Of a stretch of 44,642 bases of DNA, positions 6,694 through 38,310 are shown in pieces. The position numbers and the translations under genes are program-made. Every line of letters begins with the position of its first letter. Positions within the stretch are counted from its first letter, which is position 1. The notes under the pieces were generated by a model. That model was not told the origin of the DNA and did no database searches. It saw only the letters and a list, made by a program, of their open reading frames with translations. Origin of the DNA: a virus; IMG/VR virus record IMGVR_UViG_3300021403_000022, positions 1 through 44,642 of that record, one strand, 5' to 3'.

Positions 6694-7629
6694 ATGAGGA
6701 AGGCGTCGCTAGCCGCCACGGTGGCGGCTGTATTCATGTTCGTGCTCTCGGGCACGGCGCTCGCAGGACAACAGGGCGGGTATCAGCCGCCGAAACCACC
6801 ACCCCCGCCGAACATGGGGATCACGGTGGTGCCCGAACCGCCGGGGGCGAACTGTCCTGCTGGTGGGATCAAGGTGATCGTCCCGGTCAACCACGACGGG
6901 ATGGTCGGCTACGTCAAGAGCCATGACGGCAACGACGGCGTTGAGGTGTTCTTTGTATGCAACGGGGTGAATGGAATGCCAGGCGCTCCCGGAGCACCAG
7001 GCATGCCAGGTACGCCCGGAGCACCCGGTGCTGCTGGCCCGACCGGTCCTGCTGGACCGTCCGGCGCGACAGGCGCTACCGGAGCGCCAGGTCCTGCCGG
7101 AGCGCCAGGAGCCAACGGGCAGAACGGCAACAACGGTCTGAACGGCCAGAATGGCAACAACGGGCTGAATGGGCAGAACGGCCAGAACGGAGCGCCAGGA
7201 GCTGCTGGTCCCGCCGGGCCGCAAGGGCCTGCTGGTGTGACCCCGGTGATCACAGTCGTGCCTGGTCCTGGTGCCGGGCAGTTCACGATCACGGTCAACG
7301 GCGTTCCGACCACGATCACGATGCCAACCCCGAAGCCAGCGCCCGAGTGCGTGAACACGCTGAAGTCGGCGCTGATGGGACCGCTGCCGCACACGTTCAA
7401 GGTGGGGATGAAAGTCACCATCGAGAGCCGCAACCACTCGCAGACCGGGACCGTGATCGCCGAGCGGAAGGTTCGCGTCAACACGACCGGCGTGCCGTGC
7501 GGCACCTACGCCATCTCGATCCACAACCCGAAGGTCAAACGCCCCGCGTGGCGAATCTGGCAGTTCACGGGAGGCAACGGACTGATCCGCTTCTGGTTCC
7601 CAGGAGCGCCGCTGATCAGTAACTTCTGA
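6694..7629 (+). CDS. secreted collagen-like protein
   Basis: 311 residues with a strong SD (GAAGGGAGACAA before ATG). Residues 1-24 are a Sec signal peptide ([20 protein letters not shown], then TALA). A proline-rich stretch and a small Cys-containing domain precede a collagen Gly-X-Y region at about 93-180, including asparagine-rich [11 protein letters not shown] repeats. The C-terminal domain (about 185-311) is beta-rich with two cysteines. Collagen stalks are common in phage fibres, but a cleavable signal peptide is not expected on a cytoplasmically assembled virion protein, so export to the infected cell surface is the simplest reading. The adjacent glycosyltransferase may modify it. Confidence 0.8.
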
Positions 7630-7707: not shown

Positions 7708-8742
7708 ATGACCATCGCGCTCGCGATGATCGTCCGGGACGAGGCCGCGACTATCGAACGGTGCCTGAAGTCCGTTCACGGGCTCGTGGATAGCGTGGTG
7801 ATCGTGGACACCGGCTCCACCGACGGGACGCAACAGGTCATCAAGGACTGGGTGGCGACCACCGACATCCACGGGTGGATGCACGACCGGCCGTGGGTCA
7901 ACTTCGGCCACAACCGCACCGAGCTGATGGACCTCGCGTTCGGCAAAGCCGACTGGCTGCTGCTGCTCGACGCCGACCACACCGTCGTGCATGACGGCCC
8001 ACCGGACCTGAACGGCAGCGCGGACAGCTACATGCTGCGTCACGCCGACGAACCCGAATACTGGGTCAAGCGTCTCGTGGCCGGGCACAAGCACTGGCAT
8101 TTCGTGGGTGCGACACACGAGTTCATCGCGACGAACGAGGCGGAGATCCCACCGAGCCGCCTGCGTGCGATCACCGTCCACCACCACGCCGACGGTGGGC
8201 ATCGCCCCGAAAAGTTCGAGCGCGACCTCCTGCTCCTCAAAGACGAGGAGCAGCGCAACCCAGCCGATCCACGCACCGTGTTTTACCTCGCGAACACGCT
8301 TCGTGACCTTGGTCGCAAAGACGAAGCCGTTGAAGCGTACGAACGTCGCGCCGTCCTTGGCGGGTGGGTTGAGGAGCACTACTGCGCGCTGTACGAAGCC
8401 GGACGCCTGACCGGCGACGTGCAGAAGCTCCTCGCAGCATGGTCGTTCCGTCCCACCCGCGCGGAACCGCTGTACGAGATCGCGTGGCGGATGCGCCGCC
8501 AACGGTTCTGGGCTGCCGCGCACCTCGTCGCGGAACGAGCGCAGCGCATCCCGATGACCGACGACGCGCTGTTCGTCCACCGTTGGGTGTATGAGTGGGG
8601 CTGCGAGTTTGAGCTGTCCATCGCCGCCTGGCACGTCGGGAACATCGAGCAGGCACGCGAATCATCCGACCGGTTACTGGAGTGCGAAACACTGCCACCG
8701 AAATATCGCGAGCACGTGATCGAGAACCGCACGTTTCTGTGA
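7708..8742 (+). CDS. family 2 glycosyltransferase with C-terminal helical repeats
   Basis: 344 residues. The GT-A core is clear: IALAMIVRDEAATIERCLKS at the N-terminus, DTGSTDGT at 34-41 for nucleotide binding, and the metal-binding DAD at 88-90. After about residue 175 the sequence becomes TPR-like (RTVFYLANTLRDLGRKDEAV, AYERRAVLGGWVEEHYCALY), as in SunS-type and other GT2 proteins with TPR tails. It would transfer a sugar from a nucleotide-sugar donor to an unknown acceptor. The collagen-like protein next door is a plausible acceptor by position only. Its start has no accessible SD and abuts the hairpin at 7659-7707. Confidence 0.85.
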   Translation: MTIALAMIVRDEAATIERCLKSVHGLVDSVVIVDTGSTDGTQQVIKDWVATTDIHGWMHDRPWVNFGHNRTELMDLAFGKADWLLLLDADHTVVHDGPPDLNGSADSYMLRHADEPEYWVKRLVAGHKHWHFVGATHEFIATNEAEIPPSRLRAITVHHHADGGHRPEKFERDLLLLKDEEQRNPADPRTVFYLANTLRDLGRKDEAVEAYERRAVLGGWVEEHYCALYEAGRLTGDVQKLLAAWSFRPTRAEPLYEIAWRMRRQRFWAAAHLVAERAQRIPMTDDALFVHRWVYEWGCEFELSIAAWHVGNIEQARESSDRLLECETLPPKYREHVIENRTFL

Positions 8743-11211: not shown

Positions 11212-11615
11212 TGAGCGAACCGCGCGTACTGGTCGAGAGCTTGAGCGCAGGTGATCTCGTGCGCGCCGTCCCAGGCGGTCCACAAGGCCGTGTGATCGAC
11301 CCTGCGCGCTACGGGTGGACCATCGTCAAGTACCGACCTCGTGACGCGGCTGTGCCGTACAGGCACGGCACAGCCCGGCTGTATCTACTACAAGGGGGCA
11401 AGGTGGAACCGGACGACGAAGACGACAACTACAAGGGGTGGGTCATCTCCGAACAGGTCGTCGGCGACAGCATCCGAGTACGCCAGCAACGTGTGCTGGT
11501 CGTGTACCGCGCGAACGGCGGGTACGCCGACAGCGAAGGGCCGAGCTTGTACTCGCTCGATGAGCTGGAGGACTTCATCCGCGACCTCCGCGAAGCCGCC
11601 AGCAACGTGTGGTAA
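11211..11615 (+). CDS. 134-residue hypothetical protein upstream of endolysin
   Basis: A mostly beta protein: LVRAVPGGPQGRVIDPARYG, WTIVKYRPRDAA and YLLQGGKVEPDDEDDNYKGW, ending in an acidic helix (SLDELEDFIRDLREAASNVW). The first part resembles a small SH3- or KOW-like barrel by pattern. It starts in a TGATG overlap and its TAA overlaps the endolysin ATG (TAATG), so it is translated together with the lysis genes. No family recognised. Confidence 0.6.
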   Translation: MSEPRVLVESLSAGDLVRAVPGGPQGRVIDPARYGWTIVKYRPRDAAVPYRHGTARLYLLQGGKVEPDDEDDNYKGWVISEQVVGDSIRVRQQRVLVVYRANGGYADSEGPSLYSLDELEDFIRDLREAASNVW

Positions 11616-12268
11616 TGCCACCCGAGAACGGCAAACTCCCCGCGTCCGCGCTCGCGCCCATCGCCGCAGGGCAGCTAGAGAAGCACGCCGCCGCAGCGTG
11701 GAACGCCATGAACGTCGAAGCCAGAGCGAACGGGCTGGAGCTGCGACCCACCGGCTCGATGTCGAGCTACCGCACCTACGCCCAACAGGTCTACCTGTAC
11801 GAGCTGTACCGCTCCGGGAAAGGCAACCTCGCTGCGACACCCGGCACCTCCAACCACGGCTGGGGCCTCGCGGTCGATCTCGCAACCACGCAGATGCGGG
11901 CGATGCTCGACCGGATCGGCCGGAAGTACGGGTGGGCGAAGGAGTGGTCCGACGCGCAGTCGGAGTGGTGGCACATCAAGTATCGGTCCGGTATCTGGTC
12001 CGGACCTGATCCAGGACCGGACGGCAAAGCCGCGCCGGTTGTTCCCGAAATACCGAAAATGCCGAAGGGGATCAAGCCAATGGCAATCGCAGTCGGACAG
12101 ATGAAGGACGGTCGCTTCGAGGTGTTCGTAGAAGCACAGCCCGCCAAGGCCGGTGAGGCCGGTGAGGTGTTCCACGCCTGGCAGGTGAAGGAAGGCGGTT
12201 GGGCTGGCGCGGTGAAGGGCAAGAAGAACGCGACCTGGCAGTCGCTCGGAAAGCCGGGCAAGCAGTAG
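11615..12268 (+). CDS. endolysin: M15 (VanY/LAS-type) peptidase with C-terminal beta-blade domain
   Basis: 217 residues from the ATG in the TAATG overlap. Residues about 20-128 are a LAS/M15 metallopeptidase: SSYRTY at 50-55, the SNHGWGLAVD motif with zinc ligands H81 and D88, and the SEWWH end with catalytic E117 and ligand H120. Such enzymes cut peptide cross-links of peptidoglycan. After a Pro/Gly linker (130-150), residues about 155-217 contain a GQMKDGRFEVFVEA...GEVFHAWQ...GGWAGAV...WQSLGKPG pattern typical of one blade of PLL/sialidase-like propellers, here probably a wall-binding unit. A holin candidate follows at 12559, which supports a lysis role. Confidence 0.85.
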   Translation: MPPENGKLPASALAPIAAGQLEKHAAAAWNAMNVEARANGLELRPTGSMSSYRTYAQQVYLYELYRSGKGNLAATPGTSNHGWGLAVDLATTQMRAMLDRIGRKYGWAKEWSDAQSEWWHIKYRSGIWSGPDPGPDGKAAPVVPEIPKMPKGIKPMAIAVGQMKDGRFEVFVEAQPAKAGEAGEVFHAWQVKEGGWAGAVKGKKNATWQSLGKPGKQ

Positions 12269-21421: not shown

Positions 21422-21837
21422 GCAGACACGGCCCGGCGAAAGCCCCGTGCCGCTCATGCCCGTACCGCCGCGACGTGCCGTCCGGCGTGTGGGCCAAAGA
21501 GGAGTACGCCAAGCTCCCCGGCTACGACGGCACCACAAGCCAACAGCTCGACGCTGGGGCGATGGGCGCGTTCTTCTGCCACCAGCAATCCGGTCGTCTG
21601 TGCGCCGGGTGGGTTGGCTGCCACGACATGAACGAGTCGCTCGGACTGCGGCTCGCGGTGATGCACGACTCGATCAGCGAGGAGGATGTCGAGGCGGCGT
21701 TTGACTACGTGAGCCCCGTCCCGCTGTTCGACTCCGGTGCGGAAGCAGCAGCACACGGCTTGGCTCAACTCGAAGAACCCGGCGAGCAGGCGCGGCGCAC
21801 CATCGACCGGTTGGAACGCAAGCAGCCACGACGCTGA
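21418..21837 (+). CDS. DUF6283-like Cys/His protein
   Basis: 139 residues. CRSCPYRRDVPSGVWAKEEY with KLPGYDGTT, then FFCHQQSGRLCAGWVGCHD, closely matches a family common in actinobacteria and their phages that I know as DUF6283. Conserved C11, C14, C54 and C62, C68-H69 suggest a metal centre. The helical tail ends in ARRTIDRLERKQPRR. Function is not established. It supports an actinobacterial host. Confidence 0.75.
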   Translation: MSRHGPAKAPCRSCPYRRDVPSGVWAKEEYAKLPGYDGTTSQQLDAGAMGAFFCHQQSGRLCAGWVGCHDMNESLGLRLAVMHDSISEEDVEAAFDYVSPVPLFDSGAEAAAHGLAQLEEPGEQARRTIDRLERKQPRR

Positions 21838-21870
21838 ACATTCGAGTGCGCCCCGGCGGCTAGACGGCCA

Positions 21871-21876
21871 TACGCT
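21871..21876 (+). promoter_or_regulatory. -10 element for a leaderless transcript
   Basis: TACGCT ends 7 nt before the GTG at 21884, in a 46-nt gap between genes, and there is no SD. It would make the large zeta-toxin-domain gene the head of a new transcription unit. Confidence 0.45.
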
Positions 21877-21883
21877 TCCGGGT

Positions 21884-24463
21884 GTGCCGCTGATCGCACC
21901 CAAGCCGCCGAAGCTCCCGAAGGCGCAAACGAAACCGCTGAACCGTGCCGGTGGCACCGCAGGCGGACAGTTCGAGGAGCTACACCCACGCGGTCGTGGC
22001 GGCAAGTGGATCGCGAAACCCGGTGACGGGTACGGCTCCCAAGGCCCTGACCAAACGACAGCGCAGCTTCAACGGCGGCTGAATCAGCTTGGGTTCAAGG
22101 TGCCGGTGGACGGCCAGTACGGTCAGCAGACCGCCGAGGCGGTGCAGGAGTTCCAGAAGCGCTACGGACTGTCCTCGAAGCTGGGGGTGGATGCCGCGAC
22201 CCGCGAGCTGCTGATCAACCCGCCCGCGCAGACGTTGGCGCAGGTGCAGCGCGAGAAGGGCATCGGGCCGTTCTCAAAGACCGCTCGTGCCGCCCGCGCG
22301 TCGAAGTCGAAGTCGAGCAGCAGCTCCTCGACCAAGAAGATCACCCCGGCGCAAGCGGCGGTGGACACGACCGTCTCGAAGGAAACGAAGCAGGCGATCA
22401 AAGCGTCCGTGGACGCCGCGAACCAGGCGCACCAGACGAGGGTGGACACCAACATCAAGGATGCCCGCCACGACGTACAGCAGGCGCGTGGTGACGCCGC
22501 TCGCGCTGAGAAGCTAGCCCAGGACGCGAAGGCCGCAGCGGCCGGTGGGAGCGCCCAGGCACGGAAGGACGCGAGAGCAGCGGCGCACACAGCCAGGTCA
22601 GCGGAGCGAGACGCGAAAGGAGCGCTCAAGGCTTTGAACTCCCTCAAGAAGCAGCTAGCGAAGGAGAAGGCCGCGCGGCTCGCACGAGCCCAGGCACCGT
22701 TACCAGGCGAGGTTGCAGTGCTCGCACACGGCCCGGTGCACGTCCATGCCGGTGGAGGAGGAACGAGGATGAAACTGACCCCGCCGATCAGGCGTAGCGG
22801 CACCCCGAAGGTGTCCGGCGGGAAAGCGAACGTGCAGGTCGCGACCTCCGCCGAGCTGCCAACCGAACAGCCAGGGTTGGAGGAAGGCACGTGGCCCGGT
22901 GGTAACGGGGTGCCGAACACAACAACGGTCGCGTTCGGCTACGGCGGCGCTCCGTCGCTTGCGATCCCTGATGGTCGTGCGTTGACACCGCCGCCGTCGG
23001 CGGATCTCACGATCCCGGACGGGCGCGATACCCAGCCCGACGTGCTGGCGATGCTGCTGCACGAGGCTGTTGCCGCACGCAAGGCAGCCAAGACCGGTGC
23101 GGAGTTCACTAGGGCGCTCGCTCGCGAGCGTGTGCTGCGAGCCCGGCTTGCGGAAGGACTGTGGGATTCGGCCAGGCACCCGCGTGGTCGTGGTGGGAAG
23201 TGGGTGGAGGTGCTGAACAAGCTGATGGGCGGCGGCGGTGCCCCCGCGAGGCTGCACATGCGCCACCTGGAGGACATGGGCGACCCGTACCTGAACGCCC
23301 GGCTGCACCCCGACAGTGACGCGACCGACGCGGAGCGCAGCAAGATCCGAGACATCCAAGCCCGCCGACGCCGCAGCGGTGTCCCAAGCGCACAGCGACC
23401 ACTCTCCCAAGTCCAGAGGCCGCTCGCGAAGATCCAACGACCCCTGTCCCAAACGCAGAAGCCGTTGGCGAAGATCCAACGGTCGCTCGCGGACGTGCAG
23501 AAACCGCTGTACGAAGCGTCCTACGAGGAGGTGCTGCACCCACGAGGCCGTGGCGGAAAGTGGATCGACAAGCTCGGCGGTGAGGTGCACGCACCTGCCG
23601 CACCCGCTGAACCTCACTTACCCGAGGCTGCGACCGACGCGATCATCGGCTCCCTGGGCGGCAAGCGCGGCCCTGAGGCATACGACGCACTCGTGGGCGG
23701 CGCAGCCGTAGACACCCAGAAGCACCACCAGACCGACGGGAAGTACACCCTCGCCAGGCAGGTGTTGCACCAGCAGATCGTTGATCACTTCTTCGAGAAG
23801 GCGCAGCCCGCGACCGGCAAACCGAAGGCGATCTTCACCGCTGGCGGCGCGGCGTCCGGCAAGTCGGCGCTGGCAGGCCAGGCGAGGTCGGCGGAGCACA
23901 ACCTCGACGTTCCCAAGGGCGCGGTGTACATCAACCCGGACGACATCAAGGAGATGCTGCCGGAGTACAACGCGCTGAAGAAACAGGGACGCGAGGACGT
24001 TGCCGCCGCCGCGACCCACGAGGAATCAAGCGACCTCGCAAAGCTGATGACCGGACTGGCGATGAACGGCCACTACCCGATCATTGTGGACGGCACCGGC
24101 AACTCGCACGTCGGGAAGTTCGGCACCAAGCTGAAGGCCGCAGCCGACGCCGGGTATGACGTTGAAGCCCGGTACGCGCACGTGCCGGTCAAGGAGGCGA
24201 TCTCCCGTGAGCAGAGTCGCGCGAAACGCACAGGCCGCAAGGTCGCGGAGCGGCTGTTGCGCGAGCAGCACCAGACGGTCGCTGAGAGCTACGTCAAGGA
24301 CGTGGCGAAGATGCCGAACGTGCACGTCAAGGTGTTCTCGACCGTGGAGCGCGGCCGACCGAAGCTGATCGCTGACAAACCGGCGGGCAAGGCGGTGCAG
24401 GTCCACGACCAGAAGCAGTACGACGAGCACGTCGCCAAAGCCACGGAGGTGACAGGGGCATGA
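21884..24463 (+). CDS. large modular protein: PG-binding domain, HPRGRGGKW repeats, zeta-toxin-like kinase
   Basis: 859 residues from GTG 21884. A Pro/Lys-rich start leads to HPRGRGGKW at 34-42, a peptidoglycan-binding-1 type domain at about 58-112 (LQRRLNQLGFKVPVDGQYGQ, TAEAVQEFQKRYG), an Ala/Lys/Ser-rich helical region (130-280), a second HPRGRGGKW at 432, six tandem 7-residue units of the type QRPLSQV (504-545), and a third HPRGRGGKW at 552. Residues about 590-840 resemble zeta toxin/UDP-GlcNAc kinase: Walker A GGAASGKS at 654-661, INPDDIKEMLPEY, HEESSDLAKLM and PIIVDGTGN. Zeta kinases phosphorylate UDP-GlcNAc and block wall synthesis. HPRxxxGKF-type motifs are frequent linkers in phage head-associated proteins, so this is probably a virion protein, possibly with an injected effector. 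No antitoxin was recognised. Confidence 0.75.
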   Translation: MPLIAPKPPKLPKAQTKPLNRAGGTAGGQFEELHPRGRGGKWIAKPGDGYGSQGPDQTTAQLQRRLNQLGFKVPVDGQYGQQTAEAVQEFQKRYGLSSKLGVDAATRELLINPPAQTLAQVQREKGIGPFSKTARAARASKSKSSSSSSTKKITPAQAAVDTTVSKETKQAIKASVDAANQAHQTRVDTNIKDARHDVQQARGDAARAEKLAQDAKAAAAGGSAQARKDARAAAHTARSAERDAKGALKALNSLKKQLAKEKAARLARAQAPLPGEVAVLAHGPVHVHAGGGGTRMKLTPPIRRSGTPKVSGGKANVQVATSAELPTEQPGLEEGTWPGGNGVPNTTTVAFGYGGAPSLAIPDGRALTPPPSADLTIPDGRDTQPDVLAMLLHEAVAARKAAKTGAEFTRALARERVLRARLAEGLWDSARHPRGRGGKWVEVLNKLMGGGGAPARLHMRHLEDMGDPYLNARLHPDSDATDAERSKIRDIQARRRRSGVPSAQRPLSQVQRPLAKIQRPLSQTQKPLAKIQRSLADVQKPLYEASYEEVLHPRGRGGKWIDKLGGEVHAPAAPAEPHLPEAATDAIIGSLGGKRGPEAYDALVGGAAVDTQKHHQTDGKYTLARQVLHQQIVDHFFEKAQPATGKPKAIFTAGGAASGKSALAGQARSAEHNLDVPKGAVYINPDDIKEMLPEYNALKKQGREDVAAAATHEESSDLAKLMTGLAMNGHYPIIVDGTGNSHVGKFGTKLKAAADAGYDVEARYAHVPVKEAISREQSRAKRTGRKVAERLLREQHQTVAESYVKDVAKMPNVHVKVFSTVERGRPKLIADKPAGKAVQVHDQKQYDEHVAKATEVTGA
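23393..23518 (+). repeat. six tandem heptapeptide units
   Basis: Six consecutive 21-nt units encode QRPLSQV, QRPLAKI, QRPLSQT, QKPLAKI, QRSLADV and QKPLYEA. The Q-[RK]-P/S-L core is invariant or nearly so while codons vary, so the protein pattern is under selection. Confidence 0.8.
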
Positions 24464-24633
24464 CCGAGGACCGCATCCCGCCCGACAGCGCCGAGTACCT
24501 CTCCGGCCCGATGCCCAAATACCAGGACAGCACGTTCACGGTCAAGGGCAAGAAGGTGGACGCCAGCAAACTCAAACCCCTCGACCCCGAGCCGGTCAAG
24601 AAGAAGCTGAAGAAGCCAAGGAGAGGACGATGA
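24460..24633 (+). CDS. 57-residue lysine-rich protein
   Basis: MTEDRIPPDSAEYLSGPMPK, then TFTVKGKKVDASKLKPLDPE and a very basic end (VKKKLKKPRRGR). ATGA overlaps on both sides put it in one operon with the large modular protein and the DUF6582-like protein. It could bind nucleic acid or the capsid interior by charge; not recognised. Confidence 0.6.
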   Translation: MTEDRIPPDSAEYLSGPMPKYQDSTFTVKGKKVDASKLKPLDPEPVKKKLKKPRRGR

Positions 24634-25040: not shown

Positions 25041-25388
25041 ATGTTGGTGAGTGCTGCCATCGACTTTGCCGGGTTCACAGCTTTAGCCATCGGGGTCTTT
25101 GGGGTCGCGGGGATCATCTTCACGGCCCTGCGGTTCCGCCGGGACGACACCACGGCCGTGGTCACCCAGCAGAGCCAGATCACGACCGAAATGAAGACGC
25201 TGAACGACGAGCTGCGAGCAACGACCGCGAGCTTGCGCGAGGAACGCGACCAGTTACGGTTGGAGGTCCAACGATTGTCGGGGCAGATCGACGTGCTTCG
25301 TAGCGAACTTCACACCGCACAAGCCCAACTGACCGGCAAGGTGTCCCGGCTGGAGCGAAGGATGGACGATGCCGCCGGATCAGAATGA
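25041..25388 (+). CDS. single-TM coiled-coil protein
   Basis: 115 residues. Residues about 5-30 are a transmembrane helix ([20 protein letters not shown], then IIFTAL); the rest is a long coiled coil ([40 protein letters not shown]). The topology is reminiscent of spanin-like or holin-accessory proteins, but also of membrane anchors. Overlaps the next gene, also membrane-anchored, by 20 nt. Confidence 0.6.
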
Positions 25389-26469
25389 ACTGCTCGACCA
25401 GATAGCCGTCCAGACCAAGAAGGCGCTCCAGTATTCGCGCCGCCGGTTCCTCGGCACATGGTTCTTCGGTTGTCTGCTGTCGCTGATGACAGCCGTTGCG
25501 CTGTGGGTTTCAATCGCGACCGCTGCGCACCAGAACGACACCGCCAAGCTCGCAGCGGCGGAGGCCAACCACAAGGCCAAAGGTGCGCAGGACTCAAGCG
25601 ACCAGATCGTGCTCTACCTCCAGGGCAAGCAGGGCATCCCCGGCGTTCCCGGTGCCAACGGCCAGGACGGAGCACCCGGCCAGCCGGGCACCAACCCGCC
25701 GCCAGCCAAGCCGGGCAAACCCGGCCCGCGCGGACCGACAGGTCCCGCCTCGAACGTTCCCGGTCCTGAGGGACCAGCCTCGACCGTTCCAGGACCGCAG
25801 GGTCCCGCCGGTCTGTCTGGTCCTGTGGGGTTGGCTGGGACTGCTGGTCCCGTCGGGCCACAAGGCGCGCTTGGCGCGACTGGCGCTCCGGGTCCTGCCG
25901 GTGCAGAAGGCGCTGTCGGTCCTGCTGGACCGGAGGGCGCTGCTGGTCCAGTCGGACCTGCCGGTCCTACTGGCTCGACTGGCGAAACTGGACCCACTGG
26001 AACGGGCGACACAGGCCCGGCAGGCTCAACGGGCGACACGGGTCCTACTGGCGATACTGGTCCCAGGGGCGACGCCGGGCCGACAGGACCGCGCGGCGAT
26101 GCGGGTGCCACCGGGGCGATAGGGCTCACCGGACCGGAAGGAGCAACCGGACCGCAAGGACCGGCTGGACCTATAGGAGCGGCAGGTCCTGCCGAACCAA
26201 TCGACGTGCAACTGGTCAGCGCACAGTCTGATAACGACACGACAGCCGCCAAAGAGGTGACAGTCCAGTGCCCTACCGGTTCTGTGGCGATCAGTGGTGG
26301 GTGGCATTGGACACCAGCAACCGCAGGGATATCGGTGAGCGCCGACGAGCCCGTGACAGCAACCAGTTGGCATGTTGAGGCGATCCGCGACACGTTCCCT
26401 CTAAACACCACCTGGCAGTTGACAGCGTTCGTTTTGTGTAACACCCCCTTGTCAGCCACCCCGAGGTGA
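25369..26469 (+). CDS. membrane-anchored collagen-like protein
   Basis: 366 residues. A cytoplasmic N-terminus with SRRR is followed by a TM helix at about 29-52 ([20 protein letters not shown]), a helical stalk, and a Gly-X-Y region at about 86-275 of nearly 190 residues with GPAGP and [10 protein letters not shown] repeats. The C-terminal domain (about 278-366; [19 protein letters not shown] ... [11 protein letters not shown]) is homologous by eye to the end of the next protein. As a type II membrane protein the collagen part would face outward. Such an anchor is not expected in a virion fibre, so cell-surface display is likely. Confidence 0.8.
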
Positions 26470-26477
26470 GGATTGCC

Positions 26478-27143
26478 ATGACCCGTCTCACAGCGTTCGT
26501 TGCAGCAGGCATCTCGATGCTGGTCCTGGCAAGCGCAACCGCAGCACAGCCAAGAACAACGTTCGTGGCTGCGTGCGTGCAGAGAACAGGAGGCCACGAG
26601 AGCGTCGGCGATCTCAACGTGCTGCTGCACACAGCGTGCGCCAAGGGACAGAAACCGTTCGAGCTGGCGCTGTGGCCGGTCGAGGTCACGACCGGGGCGC
26701 AAGGTCCGCAAGGACCACAAGGCATTCCCGGCCCGCAAGGACCGCAAGGCGTTCCAGGCAGCGGCGGCACCGGCACAGGACCACCAGGTCCCGTTGGGCC
26801 AGCAGGACCGCAAGGACCACAAGGACCAGCCGGGACGAAGGGCGTGACTGGAGCTACAGGACCTTCAGGACCAGCCGGTCCGTCCGGCGTGTCGCACTAC
26901 TCGACTCACATCGCGAACTCCGGGAACAGCAGCTCGGCGACCCTCAAAGAGGTCCAGGCCGACTGTCCGGCTCACACCAAACCGCTAGGCGGCGGCGGTG
27001 AGATCAGCCCCGCCGACAGCGAAGGCGTGGGGCTCGTGTCGAGCTACGTGCGCGGGAACGGGTGGTTCGTCAAGGCGCAGACGTTCGTCGGGTCGCAGCG
27101 CTGGAAGCTGATCGTCCACGTCATCTGCGCCACGGTGAGCTGA
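26478..27143 (+). CDS. secreted collagen-like protein
   Basis: 221 residues from the ATG with GAGG 6-7 nt upstream (a GTG at 26466 overlapping the previous stop is the alternative). Signal peptide at 1-23 ([20 protein letters not shown]). A Cys-containing N-terminal part, a Gly-X-Y run at about 73-137 rich in GPQGPQG, and a C-terminal domain (138-221) with [20 protein letters not shown] and [14 protein letters not shown]. That domain shares the KEV..xCP...GGG...C pattern with the previous gene. Domains of this type follow collagen repeats in secreted proteins of Thermoleophilia as I remember them. Confidence 0.75.
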
Positions 27144-28865: not shown

Positions 28866-28907
28866 TAGTCTTGTGAGTGCGGGCAAGTGCCCGAATCGAC
28901 CGAGGAG
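28866..28907 (+). promoter_or_regulatory. promoter, stem-loop and CGACCGAGGAG cassette
   Basis: AAGCACGTATCGTGTGCTAG, -10 TAGTCT at 28866-28871; CGGGCA (28880-28885) is inverted by TGCCCG (28888-28893); the 11-mer is at 28897-28907, 8 nt before the ATG at 28916. Nearly the same promoter sequence as at 28394. Confidence 0.75.
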
Positions 28908-31355: not shown

Positions 31356-32540
31356 ATGGCGACGCTGACCGGCCCGTGGCTGATGAAACGCGGGGCATTG
31401 GCCCCGCCGTACCGGGCGACGCTTCGCCAGGCGAACGGCGCAGCCATCGACCTGTCGCTGTATGACCACGTGAACTTCTTGATGCGCGAGCGCAACACAC
31501 TCACGCCCATCGTGGACGCCGAGGTCGCGATCCTTCAGGAGGGCGATGCTGAGACGGGCACGAACGTGGGGATGGTCGAGTACGACTGGGTGGCTGGCGA
31601 CACCGACACGACCGGCGACTACTACGCCGAGTTCGCGATCTACGACGACCAGGGGAACATCGTTCTGCGCGTCCCAAGCGACGACTACCAAGAGGTCCGG
31701 ATCGTCGGGAACCTCTCGACCGTGCAGATGGACAACGGCAACGGCAACGGCAACGGTGGCTCGGGACCTGGTGAGACTGGCCCAACCGGACCGACTGGTG
31801 ACACCGGACCGACCGGCCACACAGGACCCACCGGGCCGACTGGCGCGACGGGACCAGCAGGCCCTGCCGGACCAACCGGTCCCGCTGGCGCAACCGGGAT
31901 CGCCGGACCGACAGGAGCAACTGGAGCGCCAGGCGTCGTGGGAGCAACCGGCACGCAGGGTGTCGCCGGACCTGCGGGACCGACAGGCGCGACGGGCACG
32001 GCAGGACCAACCGGACCGCAGGGCGACGCTGGACCCGCCGGGGCGACAGGCTCACCCGGCACGCCCGGCGCGACCGGAGCGCCAGGCACCCAAGGTGTCG
32101 CCGGACCGACCGGACCGACTGGCGCAGCCTCAGTCGTACCAGGACCAACCGGGCCGACGGGCGCAACAGGGTCTGTGGGCTCACAGGGGCCTACTGGAGC
32201 GACAGGCGCGACCGGTCCGGCAGGACCGCCCCAGATCGCCGGAACCGTGCAGACAGGCGCTGCCTACACGTTCGCGCTCGCGGACGCGGGCACGGTGGTC
32301 GAGGGCAACAGCGCCACCGCGCAAACGTTCACGATCCCACCGCACGCGACCGTCGCGCAAGCCGTCGGCGCTGTGATCGAGGTGTTCCAGTACGGCGCAG
32401 GACCAATCACGATTGCTGCCGGGGCCGGGGTCACGTTGCGCTCGGACGGCGGCAGGGTCAAGACCGCCGCGCAGTACGCGACCATCGGGCTGCGCCAACG
32501 CGCGACCGATGAGTGGGTTTTGAGCGGCGATCTCGCGTAA
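31356..32540 (+). CDS. tail fibre/baseplate protein: BppU-like N-terminus, collagen stalk, beta tip
   Basis: 394 residues without signal peptide. Residues 1-118 ([46 protein letters not shown]) follow the pattern of BppU N-terminal domains that fix fibres to the baseplate. [11 protein letters not shown] hinges to a Gly-X-Y stalk at about 137-293 ([13 protein letters not shown]). The C-terminal 100 residues are a beta domain ([20 protein letters not shown] ... [12 protein letters not shown]) found at the tips of many actinophage fibres. Probably a trimeric host-binding fibre. Unlike the collagen-like proteins at 6694, 13444, 25369 and 26478, this one has virion-type ends. Confidence 0.8.
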
Positions 32541-37254: not shown

Positions 37255-38310
37255 ATGAACGGCAACCCATACGGTGAGTTCGGCAGGCCGATCCGCCTGC
37301 TGGAGGCGTACAAGGAGTGGCGCGACGAACGGATCTTGCAGGAGGCCGACTCGAAGGCAGACTTCGCGTCGTTCCTGTTCGGCCCGGTACGCCAGTCGAT
37401 GTGGACTGGCTACAGCCGCGCGCAGGCGCAATACCAGCGCTACACCCGGCAGGAGAACGCGCCCGACTTCCGCCAGCGCAGGCTGCGCGGCCTGAACGGC
37501 CTGCTCGGGATCGGGTACGTGGGCGACCACGGCCACTACCCAGGGATGCACCGCACCGAGCGCCCACCGGCCACGCTGTCGGTGGACACGTACGGTGGCG
37601 TGTACCAGATCACCCGCCAGGCGATCATCAACGACGACTCCAGCGAGCTGCTGAACCGCAACCCGGCGGACATGGGCTACGCGGCCGGAGTGTTCATTCT
37701 CCAGACCGTGATCGCTGCCATCGAGAACCCAGGGCTCGCGCCGGACGGCCAACCGTTCTACTCATCCGCCCGTGGGAACCAGGTCAGCGACGCGCTGTCG
37801 GAGGACTCCCTCGCGGACGCCATCGCGTTCATGGAGTCCCAGGTGGACGACGATGGCAACCAGATCGTCGTGACCCCGGCGGTCCTGGTCGTCAAGAACG
37901 CACGGATGCAGTTGATCGCCCAGCGCATCCTGAACTCGGCACAGACCGGCACGACCGTCAACTGGACGGGAGCACCCGGTGTCGGCGGGGACGTGTTCGA
38001 CAAGGGCACCCTGAACCCGCTCGCGGGCATCCTCCCGGCCGACGGCGTGATCCGCGATCCGTGGTTCAGCGACTCGAACGACTGGTATCTGTTCGCTGAC
38101 CCGAACGACGTGCCAGGGTTCGCTGTCGGGTTCCTGAACGGTCAGTCGGAGCCGCAGGTGATGCTCCGCGACCCGATGGTCCGGATGGCGCTCGGCGCGG
38201 GCACAGACCCGTACCAGTTCGAGCTGGATTCGGTGGACTTCAAGGTGCGCTCTGACTACGGTGTCGGCGTGATCGACCCGCGCGGCGCGTACCGCTCGGT
38301 GGTCGCCTGA
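37255..38310 (+). CDS. major capsid protein, HK97-fold
   Basis: 351 residues. An N-terminal helical arm (LLEAYKEWRDERILQEADSK), then TLSVDTYGGVYQITRQAIIN DDSSEL (E-loop to P-domain region of Mu gpT-like capsid proteins, written here in two parts), YAAGVFILQTVIAAIENPGL, PAVLVVKNARMQLIAQRILN and a C-terminal FELDSVDFKVRSDYGVGVID PRGAYRSVV. Length, position after a decoration protein and a terminator behind it agree with the main shell protein. AAGGAG lies 5 nt before the ATG. Confidence 0.85.
   Translation: MNGNPYGEFGRPIRLLEAYKEWRDERILQEADSKADFASFLFGPVRQSMWTGYSRAQAQYQRYTRQENAPDFRQRRLRGLNGLLGIGYVGDHGHYPGMHRTERPPATLSVDTYGGVYQITRQAIINDDSSELLNRNPADMGYAAGVFILQTVIAAIENPGLAPDGQPFYSSARGNQVSDALSEDSLADAIAFMESQVDDDGNQIVVTPAVLVVKNARMQLIAQRILNSAQTGTTVNWTGAPGVGGDVFDKGTLNPLAGILPADGVIRDPWFSDSNDWYLFADPNDVPGFAVGFLNGQSEPQVMLRDPMVRMALGAGTDPYQFELDSVDFKVRSDYGVGVIDPRGAYRSVVA

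What the first reader, a model, noticed from the sequence alone, without database searches (positions are those of the whole stretch)
21884..24463. Giant modular protein joining a PG-binding domain, HPRGRGGKW linkers and a zeta-toxin-like kinase
Three nearly identical HPRGRGGKW blocks (residues 34, 432, 552) separate a peptidoglycan-binding-like domain, a long Ala/Lys helical region, a heptapeptide repeat and a kinase with Walker A GGAASGKS. Zeta kinases poison wall synthesis by phosphorylating UDP-GlcNAc. A virion-borne wall-targeting kinase could be delivered with the DNA to weaken the cell or exclude rivals. No antitoxin is visible nearby.
Basis: partly seen in the sequence, partly recalled or inferred. 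Interest (0 to 1): 0.75.

Follow-up and report, generated by a model that had tools for sequence, protein, structure and literature searches.

The report
Phage head-cargo kinase with shipping tags
A large soil phage carries a modular protein that ends in an intact enzyme of the zeta-toxin kinase family, and the short repeated block that joins its parts turns out to be a label found across many phages on the portal, the head protease and dozens of enzymes likely to be injected with the DNA; it looks like a shipping tag for cargo, and the kinase probably does not act on the cell wall as first guessed.

Summary
In detail: an 860-aa protein (21884-24463) with PG_binding_1, three HPRGRGGKW blocks, a 7-residue repeat and a C-terminal Zeta_toxin-family kinase (E=2.7e-24). 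Relatives change the reading. (1) The kinase is a swappable module: it is 72% identical at the end of MuF-like polyproteins in other contigs, while the nearest relative of the window's scaffold (L013) stops exactly where the module begins. (3) All published zeta catalytic residues are kept, but the UDP-GlcNAc-binding ones are replaced (E100 to K, R120 to D/N, T128 to K); the best solved fold match is the NAD 3'-kinase AvrRxo1, about level with zeta itself. The wall-poison idea is not supported. (4) Virion delivery is likely: relatives are fused to MuF, portal or protease, and a cultured relative (P-SS2 ORF030) was abundant in virion proteomics. (5) HPRGRGGKW is one form of a widespread tag; its form NPYHDxxGRF alone retrieves portals, MuF, prohead proteases and effectors. 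I found no description of this tag.

The parts
21884..24463 (+). modular protein: tag 1 - PG-binding - Ala/Lys helical region - tag 2 - 7-residue repeats - tag 3 - kinase (860 aa)
21983..22009 (+). tag 1, HPRGRGGKW
22061..22174 (+). PG_binding_1 domain (residues 109-146 of the 908-aa ORF)
   Evidence: E=2.4e-11
23177..23203 (+). tag 2, HPRGRGGKW
23393..23518 (+). six 7-residue repeats Q(R/K)(P/S)Lxxx
23513..24629 (+). mobile cassette: tag 3 + kinase + 57-aa ORF, placed between scaffold end (..QKPLY) and the gene at 24630; relative L013 has a stop at this point and then the next gene
23537..23563 (+). tag 3, HPRGRGGKW, heads the kinase module
23795..24334 (+). zeta/AvrRxo1-superfamily kinase domain (Pfam limits; modelled 23507-24460, pLDDT 86.5, pTM 0.84)
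23843..23866 (+). Walker A GGAASGKS
23939..23941 (+). catalytic Asp (zeta D67 equivalent), invariant in 43/43
24445..24452 (+). Shine-Dalgarno GGAGGTGA of the small ORF, inside the kinase gene
24460..24633 (+). 57-aa ORF that travels with the kinase module; candidate immunity/partner protein

Best explanation
The gene encodes a cargo protein of a large soil myovirus. Each HPRGRGGKW block is a copy of a short protein tag that phages place on proteins of the prohead interior (C-terminal tails of portal, MuF and maturation protease) and at the head of enzymes to be carried inside the capsid. The tag most likely docks the cargo in the prohead, or is the site where the maturation protease frees it. 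At infection the cargo enters the cell with the DNA. Here the last cargo module is an active P-loop kinase of the zeta/AvrRxo1 superfamily that phosphorylates a small nucleotide-type metabolite, more likely NAD or a similar adenine nucleotide than the wall precursor UDP-GlcNAc, to disable the host or its nucleotide-based defence early on. The kinase and the 57-aa gene behind it move as one cassette; the small protein probably keeps the kinase inactive while the producing cell makes virions. Shown here: domains, intact catalytic residues, loss of UDP-GlcNAc residues, module swapping, co-travel of the small ORF, protein-level conservation of the tag, and its association with head proteins. Inferred: packaging, injection, acceptor, role of the small ORF, role of the tag.
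For: Kinase: Pfam E=2.7e-24; model pLDDT 86.5, pTM 0.84; K46, D67, K70 and R158 equivalents 43/43, R171 42/43. Acceptor: UDP-GlcNAc residues replaced (PezT control); AvrRxo1 is the top PDB fold match (8.6e-10 over 298 columns; zeta 2.3e-8) and shares the N-terminal PERxxLH and VHxESS motifs that zeta lacks; published as an NAD 3'-kinase (PMC5087710, PMC5491322). NUDIX and ADP-ribosyltransferase modules sit in sister proteins. Virion: 15 of 50 relatives are fused to MuF, 3 to portals, 3 to XkdF protease; in 16 of 28 contigs MuF or portal lies within 1.6 kb upstream on the same strand; P-SS2 ORF030 (MuF + zeta domain) averaged 96.5 MS peptides in virions (PMC2784084). Modularity. Small ORF: 4/4 contigs with the close kinase against 0/14 tag contigs without (Fisher p=3e-4), pN/pS below 1 in every pair. 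Tag: synonymous codons vary freely; NPYHDxxGRF alone retrieves portals (13), MuF (9), XkdF protease (6) and ADP-ribosyltransferases, zeta, NUDIX and 2H domains among 75 ORFs (PHROG: portal 18, head maturation protease 13).
Against: No MuF, portal or terminase was found in this contig fragment, so virion location is by relatives. The MuF identity of the sister polyproteins is weak by sequence (hhalign E=3e-4, probability 38%; phrog_241 E=0.07), though named fold matches are almost all minor capsid or head-morphogenesis proteins. TM-scores to AvrRxo1 and zeta are about equal (0.54-0.55), the sequence-profile E-value is better for zeta (3.6e-19 against 1.5e-14), and acceptor choice from sequence is unsafe. 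The 57-aa protein resembles no known antitoxin. HPRGRGGKW and NPYHDxxGRF are linked by intermediate forms, not by a proven common origin.
Confidence: 0.6

Rival explanations
1. One reading: a true zeta-type UDP-GlcNAc kinase delivered by the virion to weaken the wall or exclude rival phages.
For: Same Pfam family and fold; zeta 1gvn has the best sequence-profile E-value (3.6e-19); published suggestion for MuF-fused zeta kinases (PMC5512222); the same protein has a PG-binding domain.
Against: E100 is K in 35/43, R120 is D or N in 38/43, T128 is K in 35/43; PezT keeps them. In relatives the same kinase module sits on proteins with no PG-binding domain, so the pairing is not conserved.
Confidence: 0.15
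2. The HPRGRGGKW block is only a flexible linker or a DNA-level recombination joint that favours module shuffling, with no role in packaging.
For: It lies between modules and marks swap points; the core DNA of the three window copies is 22-24 of 27 identical.
Against: All codons vary freely among 51 copies, so protein is selected, not DNA; in half of NPYHD-tagged ORFs it is within 60 aa of the N-terminus of a stand-alone protein, and two portal-sized ORFs end 16 and 33 aa after it, where no linker is needed; the tag alone retrieves mostly head-interior proteins and effectors.
Confidence: 0.2
3. The tag is a cleavage site for the prohead maturation protease, which cuts the polyprotein into separate injected enzymes.
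For: Prohead proteases themselves carry it; acidic-aromatic residues precede it; precedent in phage P1, where a large Dar protein is cleaved before packaging (PMC5512222).
Against: Stand-alone effectors with the tag near the N-terminus would gain little from a cut; no cleavage data.
Confidence: 0.3
4. The kinase is not a weapon but a helper enzyme (nucleotide salvage or repair) in an early-infection kit, like other tagged modules.
For: Other tagged modules include cytidylate kinase, CCA-adding/polyA polymerase with HD domain, NUDIX and GNAT.
Against: The co-travelling small ORF and AvrRxo1-like architecture suggest a product that must be held in check.
Confidence: 0.25

Closest known systems
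MuF polymorphic toxins / phage polyvalent proteins (Jamet 2017 PMC5576092; Iyer 2017 PMC5512222; Bxa PMC11699363)
   Same: Head-gene proteins with exchangeable C-terminal enzyme domains, small ORF directly downstream; zeta-like kinases already noted in MuF fusions.
   Different: The window protein has a PG-binding scaffold instead of MuF; modules are joined by a recurrent tag that I did not find described in those papers.
Zeta toxin / PezT (PF06414)
   Same: P-loop fold, all catalytic residues.
   Different: UDP-GlcNAc-binding residues not conserved; no epsilon-type antitoxin upstream; has VHEESS and PERxxLH motifs zeta lacks.
AvrRxo1 NAD 3'-kinase
   Same: Best full-length fold match, PERxxLH, VHxESS, toxin gene followed by a small gene.
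   Different: About 18% identity; the 57-aa ORF lacks the KExFD..ExxYY motif reported for Arc1; activity untested.
Cyanophage P-SS2 ORF030 (1500 aa)
   Same: MuF plus the same kinase family; abundant in virions by MS.
   Different: Cyanobacterial siphovirus, about 33% identity, no HPRGRGGKW block.
T4 capsid targeting sequence on internal proteins
   Same: Short signal that marks proteins for the head interior (proposed analogy, from general knowledge).
   Different: Sequence unrelated; here also on portal, MuF and protease and often internal.

Membership tests
Zeta toxin (UDP-GlcNAc 3'-kinase) | PF06414 domain and fold | tested here: met
   E=2.7e-24; zeta 2.3e-8
Zeta toxin (UDP-GlcNAc 3'-kinase) | catalytic residues K46, T47, D67, K70, R158 | tested here: met
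   K, D, K, R 43/43; T47 position S/T in 34/43 (S in the window)
Zeta toxin (UDP-GlcNAc 3'-kinase) | UDP-GlcNAc-binding residues E100, T118, R120, T121, T128 | tested here: not met
   E100 2/43, R120 0/43, T128 0/43, T121 T 6/43 and S 24/43, T118 37/43; PezT keeps E100, R120, T121, T128
Zeta toxin (UDP-GlcNAc 3'-kinase) | epsilon/PezA antitoxin gene | tested here: not met
   neighbour 24460-24633 lies downstream and has no NCBIfam or PADLOC match
Zeta toxin (UDP-GlcNAc 3'-kinase) | phosphorylates UDP-GlcNAc | not testable with these tools
   needs biochemistry
AvrRxo1-type NAD kinase | full-length fold incl. N- and C-terminal parts | tested here: met
   top hits 4z8t/u/v/q over 285-298 columns; profile 21-252 of 260
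AvrRxo1-type NAD kinase | VHxESS motif | tested here: met
   H 42/43, E 43/43, S 41/43, S 40/43
AvrRxo1-type NAD kinase | Arc1-like partner (KExFD..ExxYY) | tested here: not met
   57-aa ORF has no such motif
AvrRxo1-type NAD kinase | phosphorylates NAD | not testable with these tools
   needs biochemistry
MuF polymorphic toxin / polyvalent protein | MuF domain in the same protein | tested here: not met
   window protein has PG_binding_1 instead; sister proteins L002/L003 are MuF-like only weakly
MuF polymorphic toxin / polyvalent protein | exchangeable effector domains in one polypeptide | tested here: met
MuF polymorphic toxin / polyvalent protein | small ORF directly downstream of the toxin domain | tested here: met
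MuF polymorphic toxin / polyvalent protein | encoded with head genes | tested here: inconclusive
   same strand as capsid (37255), neck and sheath genes, 13 kb upstream of the capsid gene; portal and terminase not found in this fragment

The most novel reading that the evidence does not exclude
The [HNQ]P-x-(R/D)-x-x-G-(R/K)-(F/W) block is a general encapsidation and delivery tag of tailed phages and archaeal proviruses: one short peptide decides which enzymes are loaded into the head, so it can be used to find the whole injected arsenal in any phage genome. In this phage it carries a kinase that writes a 3'-phosphate on NAD, which would also block NAD-derived immune signals.
Probability: 0.35. 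Interest if true: 0.85.

Novelty: new variant of a known kind. Interest (0 to 1): 0.62.

Why it matters
Which proteins a phage injects with its DNA is usually known only from proteomics. A recognisable tag on head-interior proteins and on many enzymes (ADP-ribosyltransferases, kinases, NUDIX, CCA-adding enzyme, 2H, proteases) would let injected arsenals be read from sequence and would offer a handle for loading chosen proteins into laboratory phages. The kinase also shows that 'zeta toxin' labels on phage proteins should not be read as cell-wall toxins without checking the acceptor site.

Tried and rejected
DNA-level recombination site: rejected, codons vary freely. Simple linker: less likely, tags also occur near the N-terminus of stand-alone ORFs and near portal C-termini. 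UDP-GlcNAc kinase: acceptor residues absent. No related phage at nucleotide level. Scan with the whole P-SS2 protein found nothing. Genome scan gave only three distant relatives, no host. PADLOC: no hit. Scan for further copies of the small ORF found only a contig already known. MuF identity of the sister N-terminus: weak by hhalign and PHROG, low-confidence model, consistent but not significant fold hits. The header regex used on zeta ORFs (12 of 45 against 2.1 expected by shuffling) was partly shaped after seeing the data, so it is not used as proof. The AvrRxo1 sequence (an effector of a crop pathogen) was not fetched as a yardstick; only database alignments and papers were used. Papers: no text hit for NPYHD, HPRGRGG, HPRDPGG or HPRDRGG, but subscription papers and figure-only motifs are not covered.

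Full report
What is there. The gene is an ORF of 908 codons at 21737-24463. Pfam finds PG_binding_1 at residues 109-146 and Zeta_toxin at 687-866. The contig is a fragment of a myovirus: capsid gene at 37255, neck, sheath and tube genes follow on the same strand. Relatives of the gene at 28877, 55-77% identical, lie in soil contigs of up to 125 kb. Portal and terminase were not found in this fragment.

The kinase is an interchangeable module. Residues 586-902 are 72% identical to the end of a 2006-aa protein in L002 and of a 1328-aa protein in L003. Those proteins have a different N-terminus (MuF-like), then a NUDIX domain and a weakly matching ADP-ribosyltransferase, and they use the same HPRGRGGKW blocks at module borders. 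The nearest relative of the window's own scaffold, L013, has the PG-binding part, the helical part and the 7-residue repeats, and then stops at ..SIQKPLY, with the next gene 16 bp later. The window reads ..DVQKPLY, then tag 3, the kinase and a 57-aa ORF, and then that same next gene. So a cassette of about 1.1 kb, tag + kinase + small ORF, sits at a defined joint. L018, another scaffold relative, has a different insert after tag 2.

The small ORF. ATG at 24460 overlaps the kinase stop codon, with GGAGGTGA seven bases upstream. Homologues follow the kinase at the same overlap in L002, L003 and L042, with pN/pS of 0.32-0.73. None occurs in 14 other HPRGRGGKW contigs without the kinase, including MuF-like polyproteins with other last modules, and a scan of IMG/VR found no further contig. 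Only parts of most contigs were held, so the 14 are a partial control. MuF toxins typically have a small downstream immunity ORF, shown experimentally for Bxa (PMC5576092, PMC11699363). I therefore read it as a candidate immunity or partner protein; this is inference.

What the kinase does. A profile of 43 phage relatives matches solved zeta toxin 1gvn (3.6e-19), AvrRxo1 (1.5e-14) and PezT (2.2e-10). The model is confident (pLDDT 86.5, pTM 0.84); Foldseek ranks AvrRxo1 first (8.6e-10, 298 columns), then zeta (2.3e-8, 252 columns) with similar TM-scores. The published catalytic residues K46, D67, K70 and R158 are invariant in the phage family and the T47 position is S or T in 34 of 43. The published UDP-GlcNAc-binding residues are not kept: E100 is K in 35 of 43, R120 is D or N in 38, T128 is K in 35. 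In the same alignment PezT keeps E100, R120, T121 and T128. The phage family instead shares VHxESS and an N-terminal PERxxLH helix with AvrRxo1, which phosphorylates NAD and NAAD at the 3'-hydroxyl and does not use UDP-GlcNAc appreciably (PMC5087710, PMC5491322). The enzyme is thus likely active, probably not a wall-precursor kinase, and possibly an NAD-type kinase. My estimates: active kinase 0.9, acceptor other than UDP-GlcNAc 0.75, NAD or close kin 0.4.

Is it in the virion? In 50 relatives from IMG/VR, 15 also contain MuF, 3 a portal domain and 3 the XkdF protease. In 28 contigs, MuF or portal lies within 1.6 kb upstream on the same strand in 16. Cyanophage P-SS2 ORF030, 1500 aa with MuF and this kinase family, was detected in purified virions with on average 96.5 peptides, second only to the tape measure protein among the rows I read (PMC2784084; domains). 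That shows virion presence for a relative, not for this protein, and does not show that the kinase part stays attached. Delivery of MuF-fused zeta kinases was proposed in 2017 (PMC5512222).

The tag. Among 51 distinct copies the consensus is L(Q/E)E(A/G)x(W/Y/F)xExL-HPRGRGGKW-(I/V)xKLG. Proline, glycine and arginine codons vary freely, so selection is on the protein. In whole contigs there are 44 copies and none of the reversed pattern. In L021 a protein with a tag followed by cytidylate kinase is followed in turn by three ORFs each with a tag near its N-terminus, one of them an ADP-ribosyltransferase; in L015 a tagged ORF carries a CCA-adding/polyA polymerase with HD domain. Related forms appear elsewhere: L005 has portal, MuF and then four separate ORFs each starting with NPYHDxxGRF (a zeta kinase, an ADP-ribosyltransferase and two others); Gordonia phage GodonK gp67, next to the portal gene, starts with HPRGADGRWIDKLG; an archaeal provirus portal ends with NPYHDERGRF beside a RelA/SpoT gene; phage ctUhy936 has it in portal and prohead protease. 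Of 96 complete-start tagged ORFs, 50 have the tag within 60 residues of the N-terminus; two portal-sized ORFs end 16 and 33 residues after it. Among 75 non-redundant tagged ORFs Pfam finds portal 13, MuF 9, XkdF protease 6, ADP-ribosyltransferase families, zeta, NUDIX, 2H and a papain-fold toxin; PHROG adds portal 18 and head maturation protease 13. Since the query was ten residues, that list points to what the tag is for: proteins of the prohead interior and their cargo. Whether it docks, or is cut by the maturation protease, is open. I found no description of it in the open literature.

Verdict. The class (phage head proteins with exchangeable enzymes, zeta-like kinases included) is known. 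New here are the recurrent tag and its spread over head-interior proteins and effectors, the kinase + small-ORF cassette at a defined joint, and the acceptor-site test that argues against the wall-poison reading.

Noticed in passing
L003:5170-7083: A GHKL-type ATPase (HATPase_c_3, E=2.6e-7) directly upstream of the MuF-like polyprotein.
   Followed up: no
L033:2531-4510: A LAGLIDADG element, with intein-like flanks by eye, inside a tagged protein whose C-terminal part resembles an ADP-ribosyltransferase.
   Followed up: no
window 6694-7629, 25369-26469, 26466-27143, 31356-32540: Four collagen-like ORFs; a GT2 glycosyltransferase with TPR (7708-8742) follows the first, possibly a modifier of collagen-like fibres.
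   Followed up: no
L015:5761-7719; L021:4685-7291; L027:3359-6514: Housekeeping-type enzymes (CCA-adding/polyA polymerase with HD domain; cytidylate kinase) carry the same tag, which suggests repair or salvage enzymes travel in the head.
   Followed up: partly
L039:3792-5808: An archaeal provirus portal ends with the NPYHDERGRF tag and overlaps a RelA/SpoT-domain ORF.
   Followed up: partly
window 11609-12268: VanY-type D-Ala-D-Ala carboxypeptidase, probable endolysin.
   Followed up: no
L194 (IMGVR 3300008735_000174), L205: Stretches with 8-10 NPYHDxxGRF tags in 14 kb, including a 2594-aa ORF with six tags: large tandem cargo arrays.
   Followed up: no
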